From an uncultured Clostridia bacterium (GTDB lineage: Bacteria > Bacillota > Clostridia > UMGS1883): a stretch of 64,000 nucleotides of DNA. The position numbers and the translations under genes were made by a program. The DNA is taken from NCBI GenBank assembly GCA_947589005.1, contig CANPZO010000008.1, positions 1-64,000 of the forward strand, given 5' to 3'. The notes below the pieces were generated by a model that saw only the letters and a program-made list of their open reading frames with translations, had not been told where the DNA came from and did not search any database. Positions 1 to 38,314 of this stretch are shown here, in pieces; position 1 is the stretch's first letter; each line of letters starts with the position of its first letter.

Positions 1-815
1 AACAATGGGTCGTGTTTGAGAACACGCATGAAGCCATCATAGACGAGGATACCTTTACCCGTGTGCAGGAGTTACGCAGGAACAAACGCCGCCCAACGAG
101 AACAGGAAAGAGCAATATGTTCTCCGGCATCGTCCGCTGTGCTGACTGCGGGGAGAAGCTATACTACTGCACAAGCAAAAACTTTGAGGCACGGCAGGAT
201 CACTTTATCTGTTCTACATCGAGGCTCAAAGGAAACAAGGTCTTCGGGTCACATTTTATTCGAGCTGTCGTCCTCGAAGAAGGCGTCCTGAAGCATTTGC
301 AGCTGGTAGCGTTCTGCATCTCCAACTATGAAGATGCGTTTCGGAAGGCTTTGGGTGCAAAGCGTGATGCCGAGGCAAGAAAGGAAATGTCCGGCAAGCG
401 GCGGGCACTCCAGAAGTCCGAAAACCGTATCGCCGAGCTTGACAGGCTTTTCAAGCGGCTCTATGAGGATATGGTAGCGGGGCGGCTGAGTGAGGCGAGG
501 TTTCAGTTGCTTTCCGACGACTACGAAAAGGAGCAAACGGAACTGCGGGAAAGAATTACTGTTCTGACTAAGGAAATCTCCGAGCAGGAGGATCAGGCGG
601 ACAATGTAGACCGTTTCATCCGCACGGTGAAGAAGTACCTCTGCCTGACGGAGCTGACGCCCGCGATCCTGAACGATCTGGTCAAGGCGGTCTATGTCCA
701 TGCGCCGGACAAGTCCAGCGGACATCGGGTGCAGGATGTAGACATCAGCTACAACTACATCGGGATACTCCCTGCCGCACTTTTGAACGACCTCATAAAC
801 GGAACAGCGGCATGA
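1..815 (+). CDS. Large serine recombinase, C-terminal part (5' end outside the window)
   Basis: The reading frame is already open at base 3, so the true start lies left of the window. The visible part begins at the tail of the Recombinase domain (residues like WVVFENTHEAIID), continues into a zinc beta-ribbon (CADCG, then C-S-T-S near base 205), a long charged coiled coil (about 345-600) and a C-terminal segment ending YNYIGIL, as in the large serine recombinases of clostridial conjugative or mobilisable elements. These enzymes cut and rejoin DNA at short att sites; the catalytic serine domain is not in view. The fourth zinc ligand, usually Cys before x-S-H-F-I, is Phe here (VFGSHFI), possibly early decay. 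The gene ends 75 bp from a tRNA-Asn, so an element boundary probably lies close by. Confidence 0.85.
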   Translation, partial: QWVVFENTHEAIIDEDTFTRVQELRRNKRRPTRTGKSNMFSGIVRCADCGEKLYYCTSKNFEARQDHFICSTSRLKGNKVFGSHFIRAVVLEEGVLKHLQLVAFCISNYEDAFRKALGAKRDAEARKEMSGKRRALQKSENRIAELDRLFKRLYEDMVAGRLSEARFQLLSDDYEKEQTELRERITVLTKEISEQEDQADNVDRFIRTVKKYLCLTELTPAILNDLVKAVYVHAPDKSSGHRVQDVDISYNYIGILPAALLNDLINGTAA

Positions 816-2038: not shown

Positions 2039-2069
2039 AGGAAAAAATAACAAAATGAAAAATTATATA

Positions 2070-2098
2070 TTGACAAACGAAAAAAATGTATGTATAAT
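2070..2098 (+). promoter_or_regulatory. Sigma-A promoter of zinc-ribbon gene 2134
   Basis: TTGACA at 2070-2075, 17-bp spacer, TATAAT at 2093-2098; both hexamers are perfect. The start codon of the downstream gene follows after about 35 bp with an AAAGGAG ribosome site. Confidence 0.9.
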
Positions 2099-2133
2099 TA
2101 AATCGAGGATTAAAGAGAAAGGAGAGTTTAGGG

Positions 2134-2688
2134 ATGGCGTTTTTTGACGATTTGGGTAAAAAAATTTCCGCCACGGGGCAGAGCGCGCTGCAAAAGACCA
2201 AGGATATAGCCGAGATAAGCAGGCTTAATTCCGCGATTTCCGATTTGGAAAAGGTTGTCGAAAATAACTACAATCAGGTCGGCAGGCTCTATGTGGCGCT
2301 TCATCCCGGTGACTATGAGGCCGACTTCGGCGGCATGATAATGAGCATTGCCGATGCCGAAGCTAAGATACGGGATATGAAGGATCAGATAATGGCTCTT
2401 CGCGGTATGGTACGCTGTGCGAACTGTGGGGCCGAGGTTTCGGCCATGTCCGTGTACTGCGACAGCTGCGGCGCCGAAATGCCCCGCAAAAAAGAGGTCG
2501 AAAATCTTATCCGGTGCGAGGGCTGCGGTGAAATGGTGCCCCGCGACAAGAGGTTCTGCACCTCCTGCGGACGGCCCATCGCTTCCGTTAAGCCTGTGGT
2601 ACCCGCGACCGGCGGCACCTGCCCCAACTGCGGCAGTGAGCTGGCCGGAGGTTCGGCTTTCTGCACTCAGTGCGGATACAAACTTTAA
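2134..2688 (+). CDS. Triple zinc-ribbon protein with N-terminal helical region
   Basis: Soluble 184-residue protein of unknown function. Residues 1-90 are helical and charged and probably form a coiled coil. They are followed by three zinc ribbons, each made of two CxxC pairs: Cys95/98 with 109/112, Cys128/131 with 142/145, and Cys163/166 with 177/180. No signal peptide or membrane segment is visible. Families with an N-terminal helix and terminal zinc ribbons are common in Firmicutes but lack a defined role. It lies just upstream of two membrane proteins that start with the same kind of ribbon, so the three may act together, for example by ribbon-ribbon contacts or metal sensing; that is inference. 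The start is supported by the promoter and AAAGGAG site. Confidence 0.85.
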   Translation: MAFFDDLGKKISATGQSALQKTKDIAEISRLNSAISDLEKVVENNYNQVGRLYVALHPGDYEADFGGMIMSIADAEAKIRDMKDQIMALRGMVRCANCGAEVSAMSVYCDSCGAEMPRKKEVENLIRCEGCGEMVPRDKRFCTSCGRPIASVKPVVPATGGTCPNCGSELAGGSAFCTQCGYKL

Positions 2689-2689
2689 G

Positions 2690-2722
2690 CACAGGGGAGT
2701 CGACCCCCGTGCGCTTATTAAG
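2690..2722. repeat. Imperfect inverted repeat with GGGGAGTCGACCCC core
   Basis: Between two zinc-ribbon genes, the arms TAAGCAC and GTGCGCTTA flank a GGGG-AGTCGA-CCCC centre, giving a long hairpin with one mismatch and one bulge. There is no T-run, so it is not a typical terminator. A similar GGGGAGTCGAC core recurs in the perfect palindrome at 49835-49866. Confidence 0.55.
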
Positions 2723-2777
2723 TTGTTTGAACCGAAAGGTTTTAAACTGAAATTATTTTTGAGAGGAAGAGGTAAAA

Positions 2778-3485
2778 ATGGCAAAATTTTGCAGTAACTG
2801 CGGCGCTCCGCTGAATGAGAGCTCCAAGGTGTGCGGCAACTGCGGCAAACCCAATCCGGGTTATGTTGCTCCCGCCGGCGCGCCGGCAGGGACGCCCGAC
2901 GGGGCTCCCAAAATCCCCAATCCCGGCAGCATAAATCTTGGCGGTGCGGTAAGCGCCGATAAGATCAAGCAGATGCTGCCCAAGATAATCGCCGCCGTGG
3001 TTGCGATCATCGTGGTCATCGTGGCTGTCAGCACCTGTGCCGCCAACACCGGCTACAAGGGAACCGCCAAGAGCTACATAAAGGCTTTGGTGGCCGAGGA
3101 CGAGGACAAGGCCGTCAAGCTTCTCAGCGAAGTAATGATGGATGGCATGGACATTAGCGAAAAGGACATGGCCGATGGACTTGAAAGTACATTCAAGTCC
3201 AGTATGGAATACGTAGAGGACCGCGTTGGCAAGAAGGTAAAGGTTAAGAAAATAGAGTTCACCGACATTGACAAGTATGACAAGGACGACTTTGAGGACT
3301 TTATTGATGAGTTGGACGACAATGACGTTGACGATTCCGACAAGATTAAGGGCGTCGTTGAGATTGAGGCCCTCGTTAACCTTAAGGGCAGCAAGAAGGA
3401 CCGTGATTACGAGATAAACTTTACCATGGTTAAGGAAAGCGGCAAGTGGAAGATATTTGATATTCCGACCCTTCATGAGGACTAA
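2778..3485 (+). CDS. Membrane-anchored zinc-ribbon protein, copy 1
   Basis: 235 residues: an N-terminal zinc ribbon (Cys5/8 and Cys19/22), a Pro/Gly/Ala-rich linker (about 28-55), one strongly hydrophobic helix (about 69-86) and an acidic extracytoplasmic domain of about 145 residues that resembles the NTF2-like/DUF4878 fold (helix GTAKSYIKALVAEDEDKA, C-terminal VKESGKWKIFD). Topology is probably ribbon inside, acidic domain outside. The gene at 3615 is a close paralogue whose last 130 residues are nearly the same. A ribosome site (GAGAGGAAGAGG) precedes the ATG. Function is unknown; the layout would suit a sensor or a small accessory membrane protein. It ends with its own terminator. Confidence 0.82.
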   Translation: MAKFCSNCGAPLNESSKVCGNCGKPNPGYVAPAGAPAGTPDGAPKIPNPGSINLGGAVSADKIKQMLPKIIAAVVAIIVVIVAVSTCAANTGYKGTAKSYIKALVAEDEDKAVKLLSEVMMDGMDISEKDMADGLESTFKSSMEYVEDRVGKKVKVKKIEFTDIDKYDKDDFEDFIDELDDNDVDDSDKIKGVVEIEALVNLKGSKKDRDYEINFTMVKESGKWKIFDIPTLHED

Positions 3486-3502
3486 TCGGCGATAACGTGA
3501 CA

Positions 3503-3541
3503 ATAAAAAAACTCCCGCGGGTTGACCTGTGGGAGTTTTTT
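3503..3541 (+). terminator. Rho-independent terminator after zinc-ribbon copy 1
   Basis: An A-run, then ACTCCC, a 13-nt loop region containing GGTTGACC, GGGAGT and a T-run. It is almost identical to the terminator at 4299-4336, so it was duplicated together with the gene. Confidence 0.85.
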
Positions 3542-3614
3542 AGAAAAGACGCGCAAAGGCTTTATAACTGCCGAAAAACGATATTTGGTTAAATAAATAA
3601 CGGGGGTGAATAAT

Positions 3615-4280
3615 ATGGCAAAGGTTTGCGGTAATTGTGGCGCTTCAATTTCGGATAGCGCGGTCTTCTGTGGGAGCTGCGGCGCTCCCGTCGAGACAGC
3701 CGCGTCCAAAAAAGGGCCCAACGTCAAGCTCATAGTGATAATAGCGGTGATAGTCGCGGTGATTGCCGCCGCCGCTGTCGGCATTATTTATGCGGTGAAC
3801 AACGCCGGCGGCTCCGGCGGGGACAAGGACGATGATAAGGCCGACAGCTACGAGGACGTGGCCAGGAGCTATATAGAGGCTTTGGTGGCCGAGGACTGGG
3901 ATAAGGCCGCCAAGCTTTTCAGCGAAGTAATGATGGATTACGAAGATGTTGACGAAAAGGACGTGGCCGATAGTCTTGAAATTACATTCAAGTCCAGAAT
4001 GGAATACGTAGAGGATCGCGTAGGCAAAAAGGTAAAGGTCCGGAAGATAGAGTTCACCGACATTGACAAGTACGACAAGGACGACCTTGAGGACTTTATT
4101 GATGAGTTGGACGATAGTGGCGTTTACGATCCCGACAAGATTAAGGGCGTCGTTGAGGTTGAGGCCCTCGTTAACCTTAAGGGCAGCAAGAAGGATCGCG
4201 ATTACGAGATGAACTTTCTCATGGTTAAGGAAAGCGGCAAGTGGAAAATATTTACTGCTTTCGGCCCCTATGAGGACTAA
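3615..4280 (+). CDS. Membrane-anchored zinc-ribbon protein, copy 2
   Basis: 221-residue paralogue of the preceding gene: zinc ribbon (Cys5/8 and 19/22), a short linker, a transmembrane helix (about 38-61), a Gly/Asp linker and the same acidic C-terminal domain. ATG 3615 gives MAKVCGNCGA, matching the MAKFCSNCGA start of copy 1, and follows a GGGGGTG ribosome site; a GTG nine bases upstream is less likely. The N-terminal half has diverged (the linker is shorter and lacks the Pro/Gly tract), whereas the acidic domain and the terminator are nearly unchanged. This points to a recent tandem duplication or gene conversion limited to the 3' half. No clear separate promoter was found between the copies. 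Confidence 0.82.
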   Translation: MAKVCGNCGASISDSAVFCGSCGAPVETAASKKGPNVKLIVIIAVIVAVIAAAAVGIIYAVNNAGGSGGDKDDDKADSYEDVARSYIEALVAEDWDKAAKLFSEVMMDYEDVDEKDVADSLEITFKSRMEYVEDRVGKKVKVRKIEFTDIDKYDKDDLEDFIDELDDSGVYDPDKIKGVVEVEALVNLKGSKKDRDYEMNFLMVKESGKWKIFTAFGPYED

Positions 4281-4298
4281 TCGGCGATAACGTGACAA

Positions 4299-4336
4299 TA
4301 AAAAACTCCCACGGGTTGACCTGTGGGAGTTTTTTG
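4299..4336. terminator. Bidirectional terminator between zinc-ribbon copy 2 and the adhE-APH operon
   Basis: ACTCCCAC and GTGGGAGT form an 8-bp stem with A-rich and T-rich flanks, so it can work for both converging genes. It duplicates the element at 3503-3541. Confidence 0.85.
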
Positions 4337-7990: not shown

Positions 7991-8129
7991 GATATCATAG
8001 AAAGAATGTGGTTTTGTATGTTTTGTACAAAAAACGGGCAAAAAGCACGGGAACAAATCAAAAGAAAGCAGTCCGCGAGACCGTAAAACGAGACTGTAAA
8101 AACGGAAAAACTGAATGGAGGAATTTTAT

Positions 8130-11100
8130 ATGAAAATGAAAAAACTTTTGGCCGCGGCCCTCGCCCTCGCGATGGTTGCCGCTCTTGTGCCGGGGCTGGC
8201 GGTAACGGCCGGCGCGGAGGAGGCGGGCACGCTCGGTGACAGTTTTACCGACGCTGTTGTATATAACTATATCAAGGAACAGTTACCGGTTTTTGACGCT
8301 GTGAGAGATTTCAAAGGAACATACAAACAGGACATGAAAATATCCGACGCATGGGACGGTTGGAGCGGCGGAAACGGAGATGCAGCAGTAGACAGTGACG
8401 GAACCTTTTTAAATGTTGCTGGCTCGGGCACGGCTCCAAGAATACAGGTTTACAGCAGCGAAAAAGGTGGAAATGGATATGGACACCCACAGACTGTCAG
8501 TACACCTGGTTATGGCCAAAACAGCGATTTTATATTATTTAGATTTAAGACGGAATATGATGCGAGTTGGGGCGATGTGGCATTTAAGGATTCTCAAGGC
8601 AGTTTGATAACTTCATTCCGTTTTGGCAGTGGCGACAATAATTCTTTCAATGTAAGCTGGGGTCACAGCGGCTGGGCAACTCCTTTTGGTGACGATTGGG
8701 GAAAAAGGGCATATTCCGCAGGCAATGCGAAAAACCAGACCGTTCAGAGCGGTGTGTCTCAAATAGATATTTTGATACGCAAAAAAAGTGCGGACAGCTA
8801 TGTAGCCACATATTTTTGCGACGGAAGCCTGTTTTGTACAGCGGTTTATGAAGGAACATTTGAAGATTTAAGATATATTGTAATGAGCGTGGGAGCTTGG
8901 GGTAAGGACGATAACTACAAGAGAATATCGCTTCTCACTCCCTCGATTTACGCAGGAAATTATTCCGATATCGCAACTAACGAACTTTCTTACTACACTG
9001 TAAATTACAGCTTTGACGATAACAAAACGGTTGAAGCTACAAAAACATATTATGACACTAATGCAGATAATTTAAAGGGTTACAACAATGGGGTTATATT
9101 CCCGAATGTGGAAATTCCTTATTTTGAGGGGTATGTATTCCATACAAAGGCGGTTGATGCAGGGTCAAATACAGTGACGCTGAGCTATAAGACAGCGGAC
9201 AACAAAAAATTCTTTGATAATGTGAGTGTGGATACAAAGCTGACGGATTTAAATATGCTTGGCGCTCACGACGCATTTACGGCCGGTATGAATTCCAGTA
9301 ATGTCATGGCCGACGCAGCAAATATAACATTGGAGAATAGTCTTTTAGGCAGCTCGGCACTGGCCGCATCCGCTGGGAGCGGTGCAATTCCGTACAGCCG
9401 GGCGCAAAGCACCGACGCATATGGACTTTTGGAAGCGGGAGTGCGTTATTTCGATATACGGCTTTCAAGGTCTTCGAAGACCGCAACGTATGGATTTCTG
9501 CGAACAGCCCAGCACACAAATGGCGTGTTTTATACTACGCACGGCCTGCTCAGTAATGAACTTAGACCGATACTATTTACCATTGGGCAATGGGCAAAGG
9601 CACATCCAGGAGAAATCATAGCCCTGGATTTCCAAAGCGTTGCGGATACGACGGACGGACAGACGATCAATAGTGTTGACGGGCATGGCTCGGTGCAAAC
9701 ATGGAATGATATTAATACGTTGCTTGTGGAGTCTGGGATATATTCTCTTGCGACCATCAGCGACAGCGTGGCGAACGTCACATACGGAGAGCTGACAGAC
9801 AACGGAAAACGTTCAAATGTACTTATATTTGCACAGACATTAGCTAAGGATATAGGAAGGTTTATTGAAAGGAACGGCGGCGGCGAAACCGGTCTCTTCT
9901 CGGGGCAGCTTTATTCCAATTATAATCAGACAAGCCCGGCCATAGGTAATGCGTACAATGCCGCATATATACAGTCTCAGGCGGACGTGGGTATTGCGGA
10001 CAGTAGATTCCAAAACATGGTTCGCGTTATGCAGGCGCAGTCAGGGGGAACAAGCGGCAACCTTTTGAATCAGGCGGCTACTGATCACCCCAAGCTCCTG
10101 AACGACCTGAAAGATAGTAAGTCATTATGGCTTGAACAACTCCCCGTAATCATGGTCGACGACGCGGCGGTAGGGACGGAAGAATTACTTAAATTACTTA
10201 AGAGCAGTAATGAGGTGATAACAACAAATTACAAGCTTGACGGCAGAACGCTTGAGACAAAGAAGCACAAACAAAACATAGCCCGCCAATACGGTTATCG
10301 TGAGGAAAATACAGGTAATGTTCTTTATTACGGCGAAAAGACAGCTGTAGAAATGGTTGGGGAGAGTATTGACATTGAATTGAAAGCCGTAAACAATGCC
10401 GATGTAAAAGATTACAAAAAGGGTGCGGTTTTTGAGCATGAAGGCAAAACCTATCAGGTTGTCAGCGGAAACCTTATCCCCAATGGTGATTTTGCCTATG
10501 GCACCGCCGGTTGGTACGATAGAGCTAATAATGAATTGGCTATGCCCCATTGGAAAGTTGAAGATGGTGTTCTTGAGCATAAAGATAACGAAACAGGCGA
10601 AAACTCCGCTCAAAGGCTTGGAACGGCTTGGGACGTTAAAGCTGGTAAAAAGTATGTTTTCACTATTGATTCGGCAAAAACATCAGTTGATAGTAGTCGC
10701 AATTATAGCGAAATCACATTCCCGAATGGCACTAACTCAAAACTTCCAACGTCATACGACACACTTACAACAGATACTTTCGTTTTTGACAGCGGTGACA
10801 AAGACGGGACTTTGGCTTTGCATTTCCGTTGGTTAACCAATGAGGCAAAATACGATAACTTCGGCCTTTATGAGGTTAAGGAAATTAATCCCGCTTTAGA
10901 CGCCAAACTGGGTTATGACGGCAAAAATCTCACGATAGACTATTTGTTTGGCGGCGATATGCCGGAGGGTTATACGGTCGAGGTGACAAGACAGGACGGA
11001 ACGGCAGTAGGCACAGCAGTGGACGAAGCCAAGCTCACCGAAAACAACAACACCATAATTCTTACCCCGTCCGACAGCAACGCCATTTATACCGTTACAG

Positions 11101-11618
11101 TTAAGGCGGGCGAAAAGGCCGTCGGTTCAATCAGTGCAAGCCTTTACAGCGAGGTGGTGGAAAACCTCGAAAATGTGGGTTATACAGGCGAAAATGCGCC
11201 AAACAGTGACATGATAGCCAAGGCCAACGCGGTTATCACCCACGGCGGAGTATACTATGACGGCAATGCGGACACGCTGAACGCCGAGACAAAGAAAATC
11301 GTTGAAGTTACCGAGACGGACGGAAAAATCACCGTTACGGTCAAGGAGCCCTACAAGGGTTACGGCATAGGCTTTATACTCAGCGGCGGCAAGATTTATG
11401 TAGGTTCGGAGGACAGAACGATAACGGACGCCGAGGCGGACAAGGTTTATGACAGCTTTACCGTTGATAAAAACGGCGGTACCGTTACCCTTTCCAACGC
11501 GGCGGAGGTCGTGACACTGTCTCTTGACGCGGTGAATATAGAGCTTGCGGAAACGCTCGCCGGCGAAATCGATGCTGACGGCGCGGACGCCCGTTACGGC
11601 CTTGTGCCCGAAATATGA
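8130..11618 (+). CDS. Large secreted protein with PI-PLC-like phosphodiesterase domain
   Basis: 1,162 residues, exported by a Sec signal peptide (KMKKLL, hydrophobic core, AGA-E). The N-terminal 300 residues are beta-rich and may be a lectin/LamG-like module. Residues of about 375-680 match the X-domain barrel of phosphatidylinositol-specific phospholipase C: LGAHDAFT (His380), YFDIRLS, TTHGLL (His471) and GEIIALDFQ. Around residue 780 a segment beginning NLIPNGDF, then GTAGW, resembles a CBM4/9-like carbohydrate-binding module; the C-terminus is a further beta-rich region. The paired histidines suggest phosphodiester cleavage, on lipid or another extracellular substrate. ATG 8130 follows GGAGG; the upstream ATG 8115 overlaps that site. 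Base composition is clearly more AT-rich in the middle than at both ends. Confidence 0.78.
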   Translation: MKMKKLLAAALALAMVAALVPGLAVTAGAEEAGTLGDSFTDAVVYNYIKEQLPVFDAVRDFKGTYKQDMKISDAWDGWSGGNGDAAVDSDGTFLNVAGSGTAPRIQVYSSEKGGNGYGHPQTVSTPGYGQNSDFILFRFKTEYDASWGDVAFKDSQGSLITSFRFGSGDNNSFNVSWGHSGWATPFGDDWGKRAYSAGNAKNQTVQSGVSQIDILIRKKSADSYVATYFCDGSLFCTAVYEGTFEDLRYIVMSVGAWGKDDNYKRISLLTPSIYAGNYSDIATNELSYYTVNYSFDDNKTVEATKTYYDTNADNLKGYNNGVIFPNVEIPYFEGYVFHTKAVDAGSNTVTLSYKTADNKKFFDNVSVDTKLTDLNMLGAHDAFTAGMNSSNVMADAANITLENSLLGSSALAASAGSGAIPYSRAQSTDAYGLLEAGVRYFDIRLSRSSKTATYGFLRTAQHTNGVFYTTHGLLSNELRPILFTIGQWAKAHPGEIIALDFQSVADTTDGQTINSVDGHGSVQTWNDINTLLVESGIYSLATISDSVANVTYGELTDNGKRSNVLIFAQTLAKDIGRFIERNGGGETGLFSGQLYSNYNQTSPAIGNAYNAAYIQSQADVGIADSRFQNMVRVMQAQSGGTSGNLLNQAATDHPKLLNDLKDSKSLWLEQLPVIMVDDAAVGTEELLKLLKSSNEVITTNYKLDGRTLETKKHKQNIARQYGYREENTGNVLYYGEKTAVEMVGESIDIELKAVNNADVKDYKKGAVFEHEGKTYQVVSGNLIPNGDFAYGTAGWYDRANNELAMPHWKVEDGVLEHKDNETGENSAQRLGTAWDVKAGKKYVFTIDSAKTSVDSSRNYSEITFPNGTNSKLPTSYDTLTTDTFVFDSGDKDGTLALHFRWLTNEAKYDNFGLYEVKEINPALDAKLGYDGKNLTIDYLFGGDMPEGYTVEVTRQDGTAVGTAVDEAKLTENNNTIILTPSDSNAIYTVTVKAGEKAVGSISASLYSEVVENLENVGYTGENAPNSDMIAKANAVITHGGVYYDGNADTLNAETKKIVEVTETDGKITVTVKEPYKGYGIGFILSGGKIYVGSEDRTITDAEADKVYDSFTVDKNGGTVTLSNAAEVVTLSLDAVNIELAETLAGEIDADGADARYGLVPEI

Positions 11619-30758: not shown

Positions 30759-31988
30759 TCACTCCGCAAACGCATACCGTCCCATGAACAGTATCTCGCC
30801 GCTGGTGTTGTCCTTTATTACGTAGGTGAAGGGGTGGTCAAGTTTCATCTCCACAGGCTCGGGATACTCGCGCAAGCCGGTGCCCACCATCATTATCGCG
30901 GTTACGGCGGCGGCCTCGGTGCCCTCCTCGTCCACATTTATATAGGTCTTGTGCAGCACCTCGTCGATTTTAAAATCTCCGCCGTCAAACATGGAGCCAA
31001 ACTGGGCGTCGTTGTCAAAGGCCCGGTTTATGCCAAGGGCCTTAAGCGCGTCGTTCAAATTCAGGTCAAACTCCGTCTTAAATTTCGGCATGGAAAGCTT
31101 CACATACGCGCTGCTCAGCTCCGCATTGTTCAAAAGCTCCTCGGGATTTTCATCATTGCCAAGTATAACGTACATACTCACGTCGATGTCGTTATACCTG
31201 GTTCGGCCCTCTAAAAAGCCGTTTTCGTCCACACGGTTCTCGTAATTCCGGTAGGGAAGCTCGGCTATCTGTGTCTCGCCGTCGGAATAATAGTTCATGT
31301 AGTCGGTCCTGCGCATCATGTCCACCTGGCCGACCTTCCCCGCGGCGTCGGTAAAGTTTTCCCTTTCGGTCGCTCCCTTCGCGAACTCGTTCTGCCAGTG
31401 GGCCTTAAAGTATACGGCGTTGACCAGCGCGGCGGCAAATCCGCTGTCGCTGATTATTCCGGGTATCTTTTCCCTTGTTTTGTCGCTGACCCAGCCATTT
31501 ATTGTGGAAACGGCGTTATTGTCGTTCACCTCGTCGGCCTCGGCGTCGTAATAAGTCTCAAGAGTGTTTTTGTAGTCCCGGGCGAACCTGCTGCCCGTGC
31601 GGTCAGTGTTCAGCCATATCGAGTTGGCAATGTCAAGGCTGAGTATGTCCGCCTGACTGTAGCGGTCTATCATCTGCCGCGAATATAGGTTGAACTCGTC
31701 CAGCTCCGCAATATCGCAGGCGGCCAGAATTTCGCTCCGCGTCTCCCCCTCCGCGCCGTTGGCGGCCAGCGCGAGGGCCATTTTCACCGAAAGCGGCGAA
31801 AACATATAGTTTTCGTCCCGGGGCATTTGAGCGTTTAACCTGTCGGCAAAGGTGGCGCCGTCGTCCACGCAAACCACTTCCTTTTCCGTTTCTCCGTTCA
31901 CATTCGGCCCCTGTGCGGGAGCGCCCGACAGAGCCGCAAGCATCGACGCAAGTATCGACGCGAGTATTGAAGCTAATGTACTTTTCAT
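30759..31988 (-). CDS. Secreted serpin-type protease inhibitor
   Basis: 410 residues. A signal peptide built from three ASIL/ASML units is followed by a complete serpin fold: ENYMFSPLSVKMALALAANGA, ANSIWLN, ALVNAVYFKAHWQNEF, LSMPKFKTEF, and the hinge DEEGTEAAAVTAIMM leading into the reactive-centre loop MVGTGLREYPEP, then DHPFTYVIKDNTSGEILFMGRY. The Ala-rich hinge is intact, so it should be inhibitory, trapping a serine or cysteine protease outside the cell. M17 of the open frame (31988) follows AAAGGA and is chosen over upstream starts. Gut bacteria use serpins against host or competitor proteases; the target is unknown. Confidence 0.9.
   Translation of the reverse strand: MKSTLASILASILASMLAALSGAPAQGPNVNGETEKEVVCVDDGATFADRLNAQMPRDENYMFSPLSVKMALALAANGAEGETRSEILAACDIAELDEFNLYSRQMIDRYSQADILSLDIANSIWLNTDRTGSRFARDYKNTLETYYDAEADEVNDNNAVSTINGWVSDKTREKIPGIISDSGFAAALVNAVYFKAHWQNEFAKGATERENFTDAAGKVGQVDMMRRTDYMNYYSDGETQIAELPYRNYENRVDENGFLEGRTRYNDIDVSMYVILGNDENPEELLNNAELSSAYVKLSMPKFKTEFDLNLNDALKALGINRAFDNDAQFGSMFDGGDFKIDEVLHKTYINVDEEGTEAAAVTAIMMVGTGLREYPEPVEMKLDHPFTYVIKDNTSGEILFMGRYAFAE
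31938..31974 (-). repeat. Three 12-bp tandem units in the serpin signal peptide
   Basis: Three consecutive near-identical 12-bp units encode ASIL-ASIL-ASML, the hydrophobic core of the signal peptide. Such in-frame units can expand or contract by slippage and change the length of the core. Confidence 0.7.
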
Positions 31989-32113
31989 TTTTACCATCCT
32001 TTCCTGCATACATAGATTAGACGCAGATAAATCCAAAAAAGTTCCGGATAGAATGTAAAAATTTTGTACAAACCGTCAAGCCTCAATCACAGGGGTGTCG
32101 AAAGACCCCGGCG

Positions 32114-33081: not shown

Positions 33082-35379
33082 TCACCTCGGCGGTGGCCCG
33101 CCGGGGCCCCGTCCGCCTCCACCGGGACCGCGCCCGCCGCGTCCGGGGCCGCCGCCCTCGGCGTCGATGGCCACGGACATGGCCGTCATTGTGCGCTGGG
33201 CCCTCACAAGAGAGGCGTAGATGCCGTCCTTTTCCATGAGCTCGTTGTGACTGCCTATCTCGGCGACGCGGCCCTCCTCAAGCACCACAAGGCGGTTGGC
33301 GTTTTTGAGCGTGGACAGCCGGTGAGCGATGGCGAAGGTGGTGCGGCCCTTGATTATTCGGGCCAGAGCCTCCTGTATCTGCTGTTCGGTCTCGGTGTCC
33401 ACCGAGGCCGTCGCCTCGTCAAGTATCATTATCTTGGGGTCGCTGAGCACGGCCCGGGCGATTGAAATGCGCTGCCGCTCGCCGCCGCTCAGCCGCTGGC
33501 CCTTTTCGCCGACATAGGTGTCGTAGCCGTCGGGCAAGTCCAGAATGAACTCGTGGGCGTTGGCTATCTTGGCCGCCCGTATGCACTCGTCGTCGGAGGC
33601 GTCGGGCCGGGCGTAACGGATATTGTTGATTATGCTGCCGCTGAAAAGATAGCTCTCCTGAAGCACCACTCCCAGGCGGTTTTTGTAGTCCGCGAGGCCG
33701 TAGTCCTCGATGCTGCCGCCGTCTATCTTTATATCGCCCTCGTCGGCCTTATACAGCCGCATAAGGAGGTTTATCATGGTGGACTTGCCGGCGCCGCTGT
33801 GACCCACAAGGCCGATCATTTCGCCCTGCTTCACGTCAAGGTCGATGTTTTTAAGCACGCTCTTGTAAGACTTGTAGCCGAAGGTCACGTCCTCGAAGCT
33901 GACGTCCCCACGAATATTCTCCGCGTCGGCCTTGGCTTCCGGCTCGGGCAAAGGCTCCTCGTCCATCACCTCAAACACGCGCTGGGCGCTGGTGACGGCC
34001 TCGCTCACGCGGCGGGGCAGCATACTGAACCAGTCCAGCCGGCTGTAAAGATAACCCGCGTAAGTGGAGAACTGCATCAGCTCACCGAGGGTCATGGGCG
34101 TCCCGCCCAAAAGCCCCAGCACCTTCATGCCGCCGTAAAGGGTGACAAAATAGCTGCCGAAGCCTATCAAAAATCTGGCTATGGGGAACACGGTGTACAC
34201 GTACTTTTCCACCCGGCAGGTGGTGTCACGGACGGATGAGGCGACGCTGTCGAAATGCTCTATCTCCCGCTCCTCCTGGCCAAAGACCTTGACAACCTTT
34301 ATGCCGTTAAGCACGTTGTTCAGCGCGTCGGTGAGCTTATCCATCCACCGCCACTGACGGTGGTAGCGTTGACGCACGGTATTTCGAATATATCCGGTAA
34401 AAAGCAGAGCGAAGGGTATGGGTATCATTATCAGCATGGCCATAAAGGGATTGTAGCTTACCACCACAATACCGACGCCGATAAACAGGCAGACCTCGTT
34501 TATGGCCTGGACCGCCACGTTTTGGATAAAGCTCTGGATGCGGCCCGTGTCGCCGTTGATGCGGTGCATAAGGTCGCCGGCCTTTTTTTCCTCTATATAA
34601 CCCAAGGACATGGACTGAACCTTGCTGTAAATGTCGTTGCGCAGGTCGCGGACCATAAGGTTGCTGGCCTTGGCGGAAACCACCTCCCGTCCCGCCCCGA
34701 TAAGGGTGGTCGCCAGAGAGCACAGTCCGGTAAGGAGCACCAGCCACAGCAGATTGGGCAGCAAAGCGGCGCCGGCTCCCTTGTGGACAAGGACGTCGTT
34801 TATAAGATGCTTGCTGACAACCGGCGACAAAAGCATGACCGCGCTGTTGAGCCAGAAAAGCACCAGCAAAATCCCGTACATACCCCAGCAGGGGCGGCTT
34901 ATCCTCCAAATGCGCTTGAACACGCCCATGCGGTCGCTGCAATTGCGGCAGATGCGGGTATTGCGGATATAAGGCCGCCCGCAGATGGGGCATTTTTTCT
35001 CGTCGTCAACGCTGACGGCCTTGGGCCTGCGGCCCTCGATAAGGTCGGTGACTATCCTCTCGGCCATGGCGTAGCGGGCCATGTGCTCCATGGTGAAGAA
35101 CACGATGGGCCGCGGGTCGCCGTCAATGTCGGCCTCCAGCATACCGGAGGAATTCAACTCGCCGCAGCAGCAGCCCGTCAGCTCGCTCACCGGAATAATC
35201 CTGTCCACCTCTCCCGATCGCAGAGCAATGAGCCTTGCGGCGGTTATCACAAGGTAGCCATCGGTAAATTTCCCGTCCGCCGTCAGGTCGTATGGCAGAC
35301 AGTAGAGTATTTCCTCGCCCTTAAGCACCTTTTCGGCGGCGGCCGCCTCGGCGTCGGGGAGGGTATAATTAAGCAGCAT
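33082..35379 (-). CDS. ABC exporter with N-terminal PH-like and zinc-ribbon region (second of pair)
   Basis: 765 residues. Residues 1-120 form a beta-rich, PH/GRAM-like domain (TDGYLVITAARLIALRSGE). A zinc ribbon CPICG-x9-CRNC follows at about 135-152, then a six-helix type I exporter domain (about 165-470), then the ATPase: Walker A GHSGAGKST, signature LSGGERQR, Walker B IMILDEAT and the switch His in AIAHRLSTLK. The tail is Gly/Arg/Pro-rich (GGGPGRGGRGPGGGG). A full exporter half-transporter that probably pairs with the homologue encoded at 35988-38249, with the DUF1854 gene between them. Substrate unknown. Confidence 0.88.
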   Translation of the reverse strand: MLLNYTLPDAEAAAAEKVLKGEEILYCLPYDLTADGKFTDGYLVITAARLIALRSGEVDRIIPVSELTGCCCGELNSSGMLEADIDGDPRPIVFFTMEHMARYAMAERIVTDLIEGRRPKAVSVDDEKKCPICGRPYIRNTRICRNCSDRMGVFKRIWRISRPCWGMYGILLVLFWLNSAVMLLSPVVSKHLINDVLVHKGAGAALLPNLLWLVLLTGLCSLATTLIGAGREVVSAKASNLMVRDLRNDIYSKVQSMSLGYIEEKKAGDLMHRINGDTGRIQSFIQNVAVQAINEVCLFIGVGIVVVSYNPFMAMLIMIPIPFALLFTGYIRNTVRQRYHRQWRWMDKLTDALNNVLNGIKVVKVFGQEEREIEHFDSVASSVRDTTCRVEKYVYTVFPIARFLIGFGSYFVTLYGGMKVLGLLGGTPMTLGELMQFSTYAGYLYSRLDWFSMLPRRVSEAVTSAQRVFEVMDEEPLPEPEAKADAENIRGDVSFEDVTFGYKSYKSVLKNIDLDVKQGEMIGLVGHSGAGKSTMINLLMRLYKADEGDIKIDGGSIEDYGLADYKNRLGVVLQESYLFSGSIINNIRYARPDASDDECIRAAKIANAHEFILDLPDGYDTYVGEKGQRLSGGERQRISIARAVLSDPKIMILDEATASVDTETEQQIQEALARIIKGRTTFAIAHRLSTLKNANRLVVLEEGRVAEIGSHNELMEKDGIYASLVRAQRTMTAMSVAIDAEGGGPGRGGRGPGGGGRGPGGPPPR

Positions 35380-35412
35380 TGTATCACCTCAAAACAGGTA
35401 TGCGATTTGTTA

Positions 35413-35940
35413 TCAAAGCCATATTTCCAGAAGTCTCAGGGCCTTCTCCCCCACCTTGGTGACGTCGGGGAAGATATAGCGGTTGCCGTCCACATCAATG
35501 ATGAGGACGCGGTTGTTGCCAAGGTTGAGCAGGTTGCTGTTCAAATCAAAGACCGTGAAATTCCGGCTTCCGGCGGTGGTCTCGGTCTCCCAGTAGGTGT
35601 GGCCGTACTCCTCCTTGACCTTGACGACCTTGGTTATTTCCGGCACAAAGTAGCGGCGCGCCAGCTCCTCGTCGATAATGGCCCGCTGTTCGCCGGAGAA
35701 GTCGGAGAGCTTCTCGATGACGCCGTACTCGACCCGGCTGTCCCGGCGGTCGCGCAGCTCACGGCGCACGGAGATGAAGTTGTCGGTGTTGCGCAGGGGG
35801 AACATCCTCACCAGCGCGACTCGGCCCAGGTCCTCGCCCCGCATCTTAAGGCCCAGCAGCCCGCCCTCCGTCCGGTAAAACTCGCAGTCCTCCGGAGCGA
35901 GGTAGTTTATGTCGGCGTAGTTTTTCATTTTATTTTCCAT
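35413..35940 (-). CDS. DUF1854 domain protein between two ABC exporters
   Basis: 175 residues matching DUF1854: YLAPEDCEFYRTEGGLLGLK, a central RMFPLRNTDNFISVR and an ELARRYFVPEITKVVKVKEE core, then the beta-rich YWETETTAGSRNFTVFD and YIFPDVTKV. No membrane helix or signal. DUF1854 genes are known to travel with ABC exporters of this kind, including some linked to cyanophycin genes, but no biochemical role is fixed. Spacing to both exporters is short (33 and 47 bp), and an AGAAGG site precedes ATG 35940, so the three genes form one unit. Confidence 0.85.
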   Translation of the reverse strand: MENKMKNYADINYLAPEDCEFYRTEGGLLGLKMRGEDLGRVALVRMFPLRNTDNFISVRRELRDRRDSRVEYGVIEKLSDFSGEQRAIIDEELARRYFVPEITKVVKVKEEYGHTYWETETTAGSRNFTVFDLNSNLLNLGNNRVLIIDVDGNRYIFPDVTKVGEKALRLLEIWL

Positions 35941-35987
35941 GACATTACCTTCTTTATTACTTTTTTGCGGCTCTGTTTTCGGAGAGT

Positions 35988-38249
35988 CTAAAGCTGTTCC
36001 TCGTCTCCCACGCCGCGTATCTTCAGCGCGTCCCGCTGACGGCCCAGCATACGGGCGTAAATGCCGCCGGGCTTGTCGGCCAGCTCCTCGTGGGTGCCAG
36101 TCTCGGCTATCTCGCCATGCTCCACCACCACAAGGCGGTCGGCGTTTTTGAGGGTGGACAGCCGGTGAGCGATGGCTATTGTGGTGCGGCCCCTGGTCAG
36201 GGTCTCGAGAGCCTCCTGTATCTGCTGCTCGGTCTCGGTGTCAAGGGAGGCCGTGGCCTCGTCCAGTATCAAAATCGCCGGGTCCATGAGCACCGCCCGG
36301 GCGATGGAAATGCGCTGGCGCTCGCCGCCGCTCAGATTGGTCTTGCGCCGGCCTATCTCGGTCTCATAGCCGTCGGGCAGCTTCATTATAAAATCGTGGG
36401 CGTTGGCCAGCTTAGCCGCGCGGACTATCTCCTCCATGGAGGCGTCGGGCTTGGCGTAGGCGATGTTTTCGGCAATTGTGCCGTTGAACAGGAAGGTCTC
36501 CTGCAAAACCATGCCTATCTGACCGTGCAGCTCCTTTTGGCGTATTTTTTTGATGTTTACTCCGTCGATGAGCAGCTCGCCCTCGGTCACGTCATAAAGT
36601 CGGGTTATCAGGTTGGTTATGGTGGACTTGCCGGCGCCGCTGTGACCCACAAGGCCAATCATCTCGCCGGGCATGACGTGGAAGCTCACATTGTGGAGGA
36701 CGTTCTTGTTGGCCTCGTAAGCAAAGGTGACATCCCTAAGCTCCACATCGCCCTTTATGCGGCCCATGTCCACGGGGTCGCGGGCCTCGGGCACATCGGT
36801 GCGGCGGTCGATTATCTCAAATATACGCTGGGCGCTGTTCATGCAGTTGGCCCACCAGTCGTAGGTGCGTATCATGAAGTTGATAGGCGCGTAAAGCATA
36901 CCGATATAGCCCACAAAGGTCATGAGCGTGCCGAAGGTCATGCCGCCCTTAAGCACCTGCCAACCGCCGAGGCCCCATACAAACAGGCCGCCGATGGTCA
37001 TAAGATAGTTGAGCATCGGGAAAATTCGGGCGGACATGAGGCCCTCCCTCACCCGCACGTCATACAGGTCCTGAGTGGCCTTTTCAAAACGGCCTATCTC
37101 GCTTTTCTCCTTACCGAAAGCCTTTACGACCCTGACGCCTAAGAGGGCGTCGTTGATTATGCTGTTGAGCTTGCTGGACTTGTGCCAGCCTATCCACTTG
37201 AAGCGGTTGAACTTTGGTATGACTTTTCTGATTATGTAAACTATCAAGGGTATCGGCAGCATTATCAGCAGCGCCAGCAGAGGGTTGGACACCAGCACCA
37301 CGCCGCCGATGCCGACGATGGTGATGGCGTTGATTATGAACTGTGGCATACCGTCGTTCAGGAAATACTGAATGTCGAGAGCGTCGGAGTTGACGCGGTT
37401 CATGAGATTTCCGGTGTGCTTGGAGTTGAAGAAGCTCATGCTGAGGTTCTGCATGGCTCCGAACACCTCGCTTTTGATGTCGTAAACTATCTTACTGGAA
37501 ACCGCCGCCCCTATTCGGCCCTGCACAATGTTTACCGCGAGGGTCAGGAGCTCAAGCCCTATCATAAAAAGCACAAAGGGAAGTATCTTGCCGTAATATC
37601 TGCCGCCCTCGGTGAGCACCTGGTCGTAGAGGGTGCTGCCGTTCAGGAAGGGGCGCAGCAGGCCCACAAGACTGCTCAGCACCACCATGCCCATGACCAG
37701 CGCCAGCTCCTTCTTGTACCGGGGCATATAGCCCAGCACCCGAATGAAGAGCTTCTTTTTGCTCTGGCATTTGGGACAGGTGCGCCGGCCCTTCTGGTAG
37801 GGAGTGCCGCACTTGGGACAGACCCTGTCCTCCTCGCCCCGGCGGAAGTCATCGTCGGACAAAGGCTTGCCGTCCCGCAGCCGTTCGCAGACCCGGCATA
37901 TATTGCCCACGGTCTTGCCGCAGGTATCGGTAAAGGCGGCGGCCACAAGCTCCCTGTCCCCGCTGACGGCCAGCACCGCACCGGTGGTAAGGTAGTTTTC
38001 CAGCCTTATCTCCCACTCGTCGAAGCGGAAAACGTCAAAAGCCCCGCTGTCAGGCCGGGCGACGATGAGCCGCTTTTCCTCGGCAAGGAGCCACACGTCG
38101 GCGTAGCTGCCGTCCACGCTGAGGTCGCTTTTGGCGGCGGCGATTATATTTTCGGGCTGCACCCCAAGGCCGCGGACAAAGTCCGTGACCTTTTCATCGG
38201 GCGTATCAAAGCCTCTTAAATTGGGATACAGCTCAGACTTTTTCTCCAT
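35988..38249 (-). CDS. ABC exporter with N-terminal PH-like and zinc-ribbon region (first of pair)
   Basis: 753 residues with the same plan as its partner: a PH-like N-terminal domain (YADVWLLAEEKRLIVARPD), a zinc ribbon CPKCG-x9-CPKC (about 172-189), a type I exporter membrane domain and the ATPase (GHSGAGKST, LSGGERQR, ILILDEAT, AIAHRLSTLK). ATG 38249 has GGAGG eight bases upstream; the frame extends to an ATG at 38264 that lies within that site. It is the first gene of the exporter-DUF1854-exporter operon. Two different half-transporters encoded together usually form a heterodimer. Confidence 0.88.
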   Translation of the reverse strand: MEKKSELYPNLRGFDTPDEKVTDFVRGLGVQPENIIAAAKSDLSVDGSYADVWLLAEEKRLIVARPDSGAFDVFRFDEWEIRLENYLTTGAVLAVSGDRELVAAAFTDTCGKTVGNICRVCERLRDGKPLSDDDFRRGEEDRVCPKCGTPYQKGRRTCPKCQSKKKLFIRVLGYMPRYKKELALVMGMVVLSSLVGLLRPFLNGSTLYDQVLTEGGRYYGKILPFVLFMIGLELLTLAVNIVQGRIGAAVSSKIVYDIKSEVFGAMQNLSMSFFNSKHTGNLMNRVNSDALDIQYFLNDGMPQFIINAITIVGIGGVVLVSNPLLALLIMLPIPLIVYIIRKVIPKFNRFKWIGWHKSSKLNSIINDALLGVRVVKAFGKEKSEIGRFEKATQDLYDVRVREGLMSARIFPMLNYLMTIGGLFVWGLGGWQVLKGGMTFGTLMTFVGYIGMLYAPINFMIRTYDWWANCMNSAQRIFEIIDRRTDVPEARDPVDMGRIKGDVELRDVTFAYEANKNVLHNVSFHVMPGEMIGLVGHSGAGKSTITNLITRLYDVTEGELLIDGVNIKKIRQKELHGQIGMVLQETFLFNGTIAENIAYAKPDASMEEIVRAAKLANAHDFIMKLPDGYETEIGRRKTNLSGGERQRISIARAVLMDPAILILDEATASLDTETEQQIQEALETLTRGRTTIAIAHRLSTLKNADRLVVVEHGEIAETGTHEELADKPGGIYARMLGRQRDALKIRGVGDEEQL

Positions 38250-38314
38250 GAGTCCATCCTCCAATAGCAGGGTCGTCCGGCATCAAAAAATTTAGGTACC
38301 GAAAAATTTGTTAT

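What the first reader, a model, noticed from the sequence alone, without database searches (positions are those of the whole stretch)
2134..4336. Cluster of three zinc-ribbon proteins with a recent partial duplication
A soluble triple-ribbon protein precedes two single-pass membrane proteins starting with the same ribbon type. The last 130 codons and the terminator of the two membrane genes are nearly identical, while the N-terminal linkers differ. That pattern suggests duplication followed by gene conversion or selection on the acidic outer domain. The trio could be a small membrane signalling or scaffold unit.
Basis: partly seen in the sequence, partly recalled or inferred. Interest (0 to 1): 0.5.

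Follow-up and report, generated by a model that had tools for sequence, protein, structure and literature searches.

The report
Zinc-ribbon membrane genes, half recopied
Three small neighbouring genes in a Clostridia-like bacterium encode one soluble and two membrane zinc-ribbon proteins; the outer halves of the two membrane genes were copied from one another fairly recently, a modest new example of a known kind of membrane protein.

Summary
Window 2134-4280 holds a soluble protein (helical hairpin plus three zinc ribbons) and two ribbon-membrane-outer-domain proteins, A and B. Their 3' halves and terminators are unusually alike (outer domain 78% amino-acid identity; 55 of 57 columns of 3' flank), while ribbons, linkers and membrane segments are not. 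Silent differences cluster: 11 of 26 informative codons in the N-part against 13 of 107 in the outer part; a free-breakpoint permutation test gives p=0.005. Single-copy orthologues of two sister species lack this pattern. So one DNA segment, outer domain through terminator, was duplicated or converted after the N-parts had diverged. "Nearly identical" overstates it. The outer domain is predicted to be NTF2-like. Soluble and membrane genes sit together in relatives, but linkage is partial (8 of 17 loci). Best reading: an envelope sensor/adaptor whose outer domain is coupled through the membrane to a ribbon that docks a soluble coiled-coil ribbon partner, comparable to B. subtilis YdjG-PspA or S. 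aureus TcaA, though not shown to be a member of either. Function is inferred. New member of a known kind.

The parts
2070..2098 (+). consensus sigma-70-type promoter TTGACA-17-TATAAT upstream of the soluble gene
   Evidence: 12 of 12 match; consensus match only
2134..2688 (+). soluble protein: helical hairpin (residues 2-55, 63-89) followed by three zinc ribbons
   Evidence: ORF; Pfam Zn_Ribbon_1 62.5 bits, cut-off 25; DZR 55.4, cut-off 27.3; model, mean pLDDT 77, pTM 0.49; ribbon positions
2778..3485 (+). membrane protein A: N-terminal ribbon, long linker, one membrane segment, NTF2-like outer domain; orthologue-like copy
   Evidence: (Zn_Ribbon_1 26.4 bits, cut-off 25)
3052..3541 (+). segment shared with B: outer domain, stop, 3' flank and terminator
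3506..3541 (+). terminator hairpin of A
3615..4280 (+). membrane protein B: N-terminal ribbon, short linker, one membrane segment, acidic spacer, NTF2-like outer domain; extra copy
   Evidence: (Zn_Ribbon_1 32.1 bits, cut-off 25)
3847..4335 (+). segment shared with A: outer domain, stop, 3' flank and terminator
4300..4335 (+). terminator hairpin of B

Best explanation
The cluster encodes a small envelope sensor/adaptor module. Each membrane protein holds a zinc ribbon in the cytoplasm and an acidic NTF2-like domain outside (topology inferred). The soluble partner, a helical hairpin with three ribbons, is recruited to or released from the membrane through ribbon contacts or a shared partner when the outer domain binds an envelope ligand or protein. 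In this species the membrane gene exists twice: the segment from the outer domain through the terminator was copied between two already diverged ribbon-membrane genes (gene conversion, or partial tandem duplication fused to another ribbon-membrane 5' half). The result is one kind of outer domain connected to two different inner ribbons and linkers. Shown: anatomy, predicted fold, clustered divergence, partial linkage in relatives. Inferred: topology, zinc binding, partner docking, ligand sensing.
For: Copying: silent differences 11/26 in N-part vs 13/107 in outer part, Fisher p=0.001; free-breakpoint permutation p=0.005, break between A residues 81 and 88 on silent sites and 96/97 on all codons; 55 of 57 identical columns in the non-coding 3' flank. 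Control: G003 vs G007 single-copy orthologues pS 0.24, 0.34, 0.41 for ribbon, linker+membrane, outer, so outer silent sites are not intrinsically slow. A-B ribbon identity (14 of 25) is about that of A to G002 (16 of 30) or G003 (15 of 28), whereas the A and B outer domains are 78% alike and both are only about 36% identical to relatives (51 and 50 of 140 to G002): N-parts old, outer parts young. Fold: model mean pLDDT 85.6, pTM 0.81; Foldseek top matches are PBP2a, E 5.7e-4; VIA-align Z 11.2, rmsd 2.7, 107 aligned to 3gwr_A; Z 11.1, rmsd 2.7, 107 aligned to 3k7c_A (DUF4878); Z 10.5, rmsd 3.1, 109 aligned to E. faecium PBP5 8f3q; Z 9.9, rmsd 2.5, 100 aligned to 4hyz_A (DUF3887). Linkage: soluble gene next to the membrane gene in G003 and G007 (overlapping ATGA), G024, G025 (membrane-soluble-membrane), G026, G286, G181 (soluble then three membrane genes), and about 4 kb away in a Ruminococcus MAG: 8 of 17 loci. 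Precedent: NTF2-like extracellular domains joined to intracellular zinc ribbons were proposed to sense ligands (PMC3924330, sections 6 and 9 read); YdjG, a ribbon-TM-NTF2-like protein encoded with coiled-coil PspA (PMC11237479 and PMC9239133, passages read).
Against: 9 of 17 outer-domain loci have no soluble gene nearby, and only 2 of the 10 loci not used to build the profiles do. The soluble family is in 166 of 293 class genomes, the outer family in 16 of 293, so the soluble protein must usually act without this partner. G002 has the membrane gene without an adjacent soluble gene. No ligand or interaction evidence exists. A strong hairpin terminator separates A from B, so B may not be co-transcribed with the soluble gene. 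Assembly error cannot be fully excluded, though two copies at 87.6% are distinct.
Confidence: 0.45

Rival explanations
1. Simple whole-gene tandem duplication, followed by faster change of the N-part in one copy under relaxed or positive selection; no conversion.
For: A and B are adjacent, same strand, same architecture. Linkers are intrinsically fast-changing: G003-G007 linker+membrane amino-acid identity is only 0.61.
Against: Silent sites also differ between the parts, the upstream flanks do not match while the 3' flank does, and A-B ribbons are about as far apart as A and other species' ribbons.
Confidence: 0.2
2. Ribbon proteins that merely sit together: the soluble gene is a general Clostridia protein and A/B are a separate cell-surface pair, with no joint module.
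For: The soluble family is in 166 of 293 class genomes and the outer family in 16 of 293; 9 of 17 outer loci lack the soluble gene; in G014 the soluble gene precedes a ribosomal-protein/ssb-like cluster (names recalled).
Against: Adjacency recurs in several families with different gene orders; 4 of 20 sampled soluble-family loci have a ribbon-membrane gene on the same strand within 2 kb, against 1 of 20 displaced control stretches, that one a 70-residue fragment (the 20 were chosen mostly from the best-scoring hits, not at random).
Confidence: 0.3
3. A and B belong to surface-polysaccharide O-acylation: the membrane protein regulates or scaffolds the MBOAT acyltransferase that lies next to it in sister species.
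For: In G002, G003 and G007 an MBOAT gene (Pfam PF03062, E 3.1e-27 for the G002 protein) and a 390-aa-class partner lie directly upstream of the ribbon genes.
Against: The window species has no MBOAT at this locus, and its best one genome-wide is only 34% identical over part of the query; the pair exists elsewhere without MBOAT.
Confidence: 0.1

Closest known systems
YdjG of the B. subtilis pspA-ydjGHI operon
   Same: Zinc ribbon(s), a membrane segment and a domain with an NTF2-like fold, encoded with a coiled-coil peripheral membrane protein (PMC11237479 and PMC9239133, passages read).
   Different: YdjG has two ribbons; the coiled-coil partner here carries three ribbons of its own, which the passages read do not report for PspA. 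No sequence comparison with YdjG was made here.
TcaA of Staphylococcus aureus
   Same: One membrane span, an intracellular zinc finger and an outer part, predicted by AlphaFold in PMC10328498 (passages read); acts on cell-envelope teichoic acid.
   Different: TcaA is much longer (NCBIfam model 463 positions); A and B gave no match to the TcaA model at E up to 1, and the soluble protein only 12.2 bits against a cut-off of 550.
NTF2-like extracellular domains DUF3828, DUF3887, DUF4878
   Same: Predicted fold close to 3k7c (DUF4878) and 4hyz (DUF3887); some members are joined across the membrane to zinc ribbons (PMC3924330, section 6).
   Different: A scores under the Pfam cut-offs (DUF3828 18.1 vs 26; DUF3887 18.0 vs 31.8 bits).
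N-terminal NTF2-like domain of PBP2a / E. faecium PBP5
   Same: Best Foldseek match and strong structural alignment of the outer domain.
   Different: No penicillin-binding domain follows; fold likeness shows no shared function.

Membership tests
Zn_Ribbon_1 (Pfam PF13240) | profile score above the curated cut-off of 25 bits | tested here: met
   soluble 62.5, A 26.4, B 32.1 bits
Zn_Ribbon_1 (Pfam PF13240) | actual zinc binding | not testable with these tools
   four-cysteine motifs intact in all five ribbons; no metal assay
NTF2-like superfamily (outer domain) | alpha-helices with a curved beta-sheet, matching solved NTF2-like structures | tested here: met
   model pLDDT 85.6; Z 11.2 with rmsd 2.7 over 107 residues to 3gwr_A and Z 11.1, rmsd 2.7, 107 to 3k7c_A; predicted model only
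DUF3887 / DUF3828 (Pfam) | profile score above curated cut-off | tested here: not met
   A: 18.0 vs 31.8 and 18.1 vs 26 bits; DUF3828 matched 5 of 10 outer domains only weakly, best E 0.0013
CaMKII_AD (Pfam PF08332) | profile score above curated cut-off of 22.1 bits | tested here: inconclusive
   B outer domain alone 22.1, whole B 20.1, A not listed
TcaA (NCBIfam NF053815) | score above cut-off of 550 bits | tested here: not met
   A and B not listed at E up to 1; soluble 12.2 bits
YdjG / PspA module | a PspA_IM30-type partner in the operon | tested here: not met
   the soluble protein shows no PspA match among the best 25 of 34 Pfam families listed at E up to 1, nor does its coil alone at E up to 0.1
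YdjG / PspA module | membrane protein and coiled-coil protein interact | not testable with these tools
   needs two-hybrid or pull-down

The most novel reading that the evidence does not exclude
A so far unnamed two-part Clostridia membrane module: a ribbon-bearing helical-hairpin protein works with ribbon-membrane-NTF2 receptors, and the receptors evolve by modular copying of the outer domain, so that one sensor domain is re-wired to several inner ribbons (two membrane genes in the window species, two in G025, three in G181).
Probability: 0.3. Interest if true: 0.5.

Novelty: new member of a known kind. Interest (0 to 1): 0.27.

Why it matters
Zinc-ribbon membrane proteins are common in Firmicutes and mostly unassigned (recalled). 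A pair in which the outer domain was recently recopied while the inner ribbons stayed different gives a natural test of which half sets specificity, and the recurring soluble partner gives a concrete interaction to test. The event itself is ordinary small-scale gene evolution.

Tried and rejected
Rejected: selection alone on the outer domain as the cause of the likeness (non-coding flank and silent sites are alike too). Rejected: a ribbon pattern search of the own genome as a way to count ribbons (the backward control gave more matches than the pattern). Rejected: membership in TcaA. Not decisive: PDB search by sequence, 35 weak matches, best E 0.043 to ribosomal protein L32, PBP5 at 0.095. 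Weak: source of B's 5' half. B's N-part aligns by DNA to the C33 ribbon gene (110 of 142 identical in gapped pieces, score 66) better than to A (46 of 69, score 46), but the match lies mostly over the low-complexity membrane segment, so no donor is claimed. Searches for a report of this pair: searches listed none whose title, abstract or read passages describe it; the library holds only open-licence PMC papers. A fold search of the soluble model was not made, since long helices match many folds.

The coil and outer profiles (A4, A5) contain sequences from G003, G007, G024-G026 and L043 (and G002 for the outer part), so finding those genomes again is circular; the 10 loci outside the outer profile are reported apart in the text.

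Full report
Observation. The window is contig C8 of a 2.1 Mb genome in 38 contigs; three of its genus relatives are MAGs titled uncultured Clostridia with isolate names 'Lapin' (a rabbit source is my guess from that name). Reading window 2134-4336 gives three same-strand genes behind a consensus promoter at 2070-2098: a soluble 184-aa protein with three zinc ribbons, and membrane proteins A (235 aa) and B (221 aa), each with one N-terminal ribbon, one hydrophobic segment and an acidic outer domain. Pfam supports a ribbon in each protein.

Divergence between A and B. Ribbon 14 of 25, linker plus membrane segment 13 of 43 and outer part 112 of 143 aligned residues are identical. Among codons that keep the amino acid and could vary silently, 11 of 26 differ in the N-part and 13 of 107 in the outer part (Fisher p=0.001; ribbon alone against outer 5 of 13 vs 13 of 107, p=0.026). 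Letting the break point float, the best silent-site break lies between A residues 81 and 88, permutation p=0.005. The non-coding 3' flank with its terminator is 55 of 57 columns identical while the 5' flanks share nothing beyond a 16-column patch. Both terminators fold into strong hairpins. As a control, single-copy orthologues of sister species G003 and G007 show pS of 0.24, 0.34 and 0.41 in ribbon, linker-membrane and outer part: the outer part is not slow at silent sites in itself. In A versus B the outer pS is 0.23, lower than between those two species, and the N-part pS is about 0.58. The event therefore copied DNA, roughly 3052-3541 onto 3847-4335 or the reverse. A is the more orthologue-like copy, since its ribbon region matches G003 at 15 of 28 against 9 of 29 for B, and G007 likewise; against G002 they nearly tie (16 and 15 of 30). 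The six residues before the shared C-terminal ED all differ inside otherwise identical DNA; a gapped alignment suggests small compensating indels.

Relatives. Within the genus, 8 genomes including the window's own were searched. An outer-type membrane gene was found in G002, G003, G007 and the window species; G004 matched by ribbon only. The soluble gene was found at E up to 1e-4 in 3 of 8. G003 and G007 have soluble and membrane genes overlapping by ATGA; G002 has the membrane gene alone there. In these three an MBOAT gene and a second gene (396 aa in G002, no Pfam match at E up to 1e-5) lie between a serine-acetyltransferase-like gene and the ribbon genes; the window species lacks them at this place and has only a 34%-identical MBOAT elsewhere. 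Names of the flanking acetyltransferase, adhE-like and phosphotransferase-like genes are recalled from their sequences. No other genus genome had two outer copies; several are incomplete.

Wider. In 293 class genomes the ribbon-free soluble profile matched 166 and the ribbon-free outer profile 16. Of 17 outer-domain loci outside the window that I read, 8 have the soluble gene in the stretch: G003, G007, G024, G025, G026, G181, G286 and a Ruminococcus MAG (L043, about 4 kb away with two genes between); 9 do not: G002, G128, G059, G236, G148, G279, G114, G037, G100. Ten of the 17 were not used to build the outer profile, and 2 of those 10 (G181, G286) have the pair. Multi-copy versions exist elsewhere: G025 membrane-soluble-membrane and G181 soluble followed by three membrane genes with similar ribbons but silent sites diverged throughout. 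Of 20 soluble-family loci, picked mostly from the best hits, 4 have a ribbon-membrane gene on the same strand within 2 kb; of 20 displaced control stretches 1 has any such call, a 70-residue fragment. Linkage is thus real but partial.

Structure. The outer domain of A, predicted from six sequences, gave mean pLDDT 85.6 and pTM 0.81. Foldseek's best matches are the N-terminal part of PBP2a, E 5.7e-4; VIA-align puts NTF2-like structures on top, Z 11.2 (rmsd 2.7, 107 aligned) for 3gwr_A, Z 11.1 (2.7, 107) for 3k7c_A, Z 10.5 (3.1, 109) for PBP5 8f3q, Z 9.9 (2.5, 100) for 4hyz_A. Rows within one Z unit are ties. Pfam NTF2-like families stay below cut-off except CaMKII_AD, which equals it for B's outer domain alone. 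The soluble protein is predicted as a helical hairpin followed by ribbons, mean pLDDT 77, pTM 0.49.

Mechanism. NTF2-like outer domains joined through the membrane to intracellular ribbons were proposed as ligand sensors (PMC3924330, sections 6 and 9 read). B. subtilis YdjG has ribbons, an NTF2-like domain and a membrane segment, and is encoded with coiled-coil PspA, which may reach YdjG or YdjH through YdjI in a two-hybrid network (PMC11237479 and PMC9239133, passages read). TcaA of S. aureus has an intracellular zinc finger, one span and an outer part and affects wall teichoic acid (PMC10328498, passages read). By analogy I propose an envelope sensor/adaptor: outer NTF2-like input, inner ribbon output, soluble hairpin-ribbon partner. 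Two membrane copies with one kind of outer domain and two kinds of inner part would give one input and two outputs. All steps after the anatomy and fold prediction are inferred.

Verdict. The kind is known, the example new, interest modest.

Noticed in passing
window 2040-2130 versus L034, L035, L036: Sister species carry an MBOAT acyltransferase gene and a partner gene between the acetyltransferase-like gene and the ribbon genes; the window species lacks both here.
   Followed up: partly
L082 1607-4690 (G181): Soluble hairpin-ribbon gene followed by three tandem ribbon-membrane-outer genes; two share an identical ribbon protein sequence although silent sites are diverged.
   Followed up: partly
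L038 964-5633 (G000:C4): Four consecutive genes in the same genome each begin with a zinc ribbon and appear to have a hydrophobic segment (by eye).
   Followed up: no
window 3460-3477 and 4255-4272: Patch of six wholly different C-terminal codons inside otherwise identical copied DNA, possibly compensating indels.
   Followed up: partly
window 1-815: C-terminal part of a recombinase-type protein (Zn_ribbon_recom and DUF4368) at the window edge next to tRNA-Asn: a possible integrated element.
   Followed up: no
window 30759-32036: A serpin-family protein, Pfam PF00079 E 4.8e-83.
   Followed up: no
window 33082-38264: Two adjacent ABC-exporter-like proteins that each carry an internal CxxC..CxxC ribbon before the membrane part (family name recalled).
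   Followed up: no
window 8115-11618: 1167-aa protein with a signal-peptide-like start and no Pfam match at E up to 1e-5.
   Followed up: no
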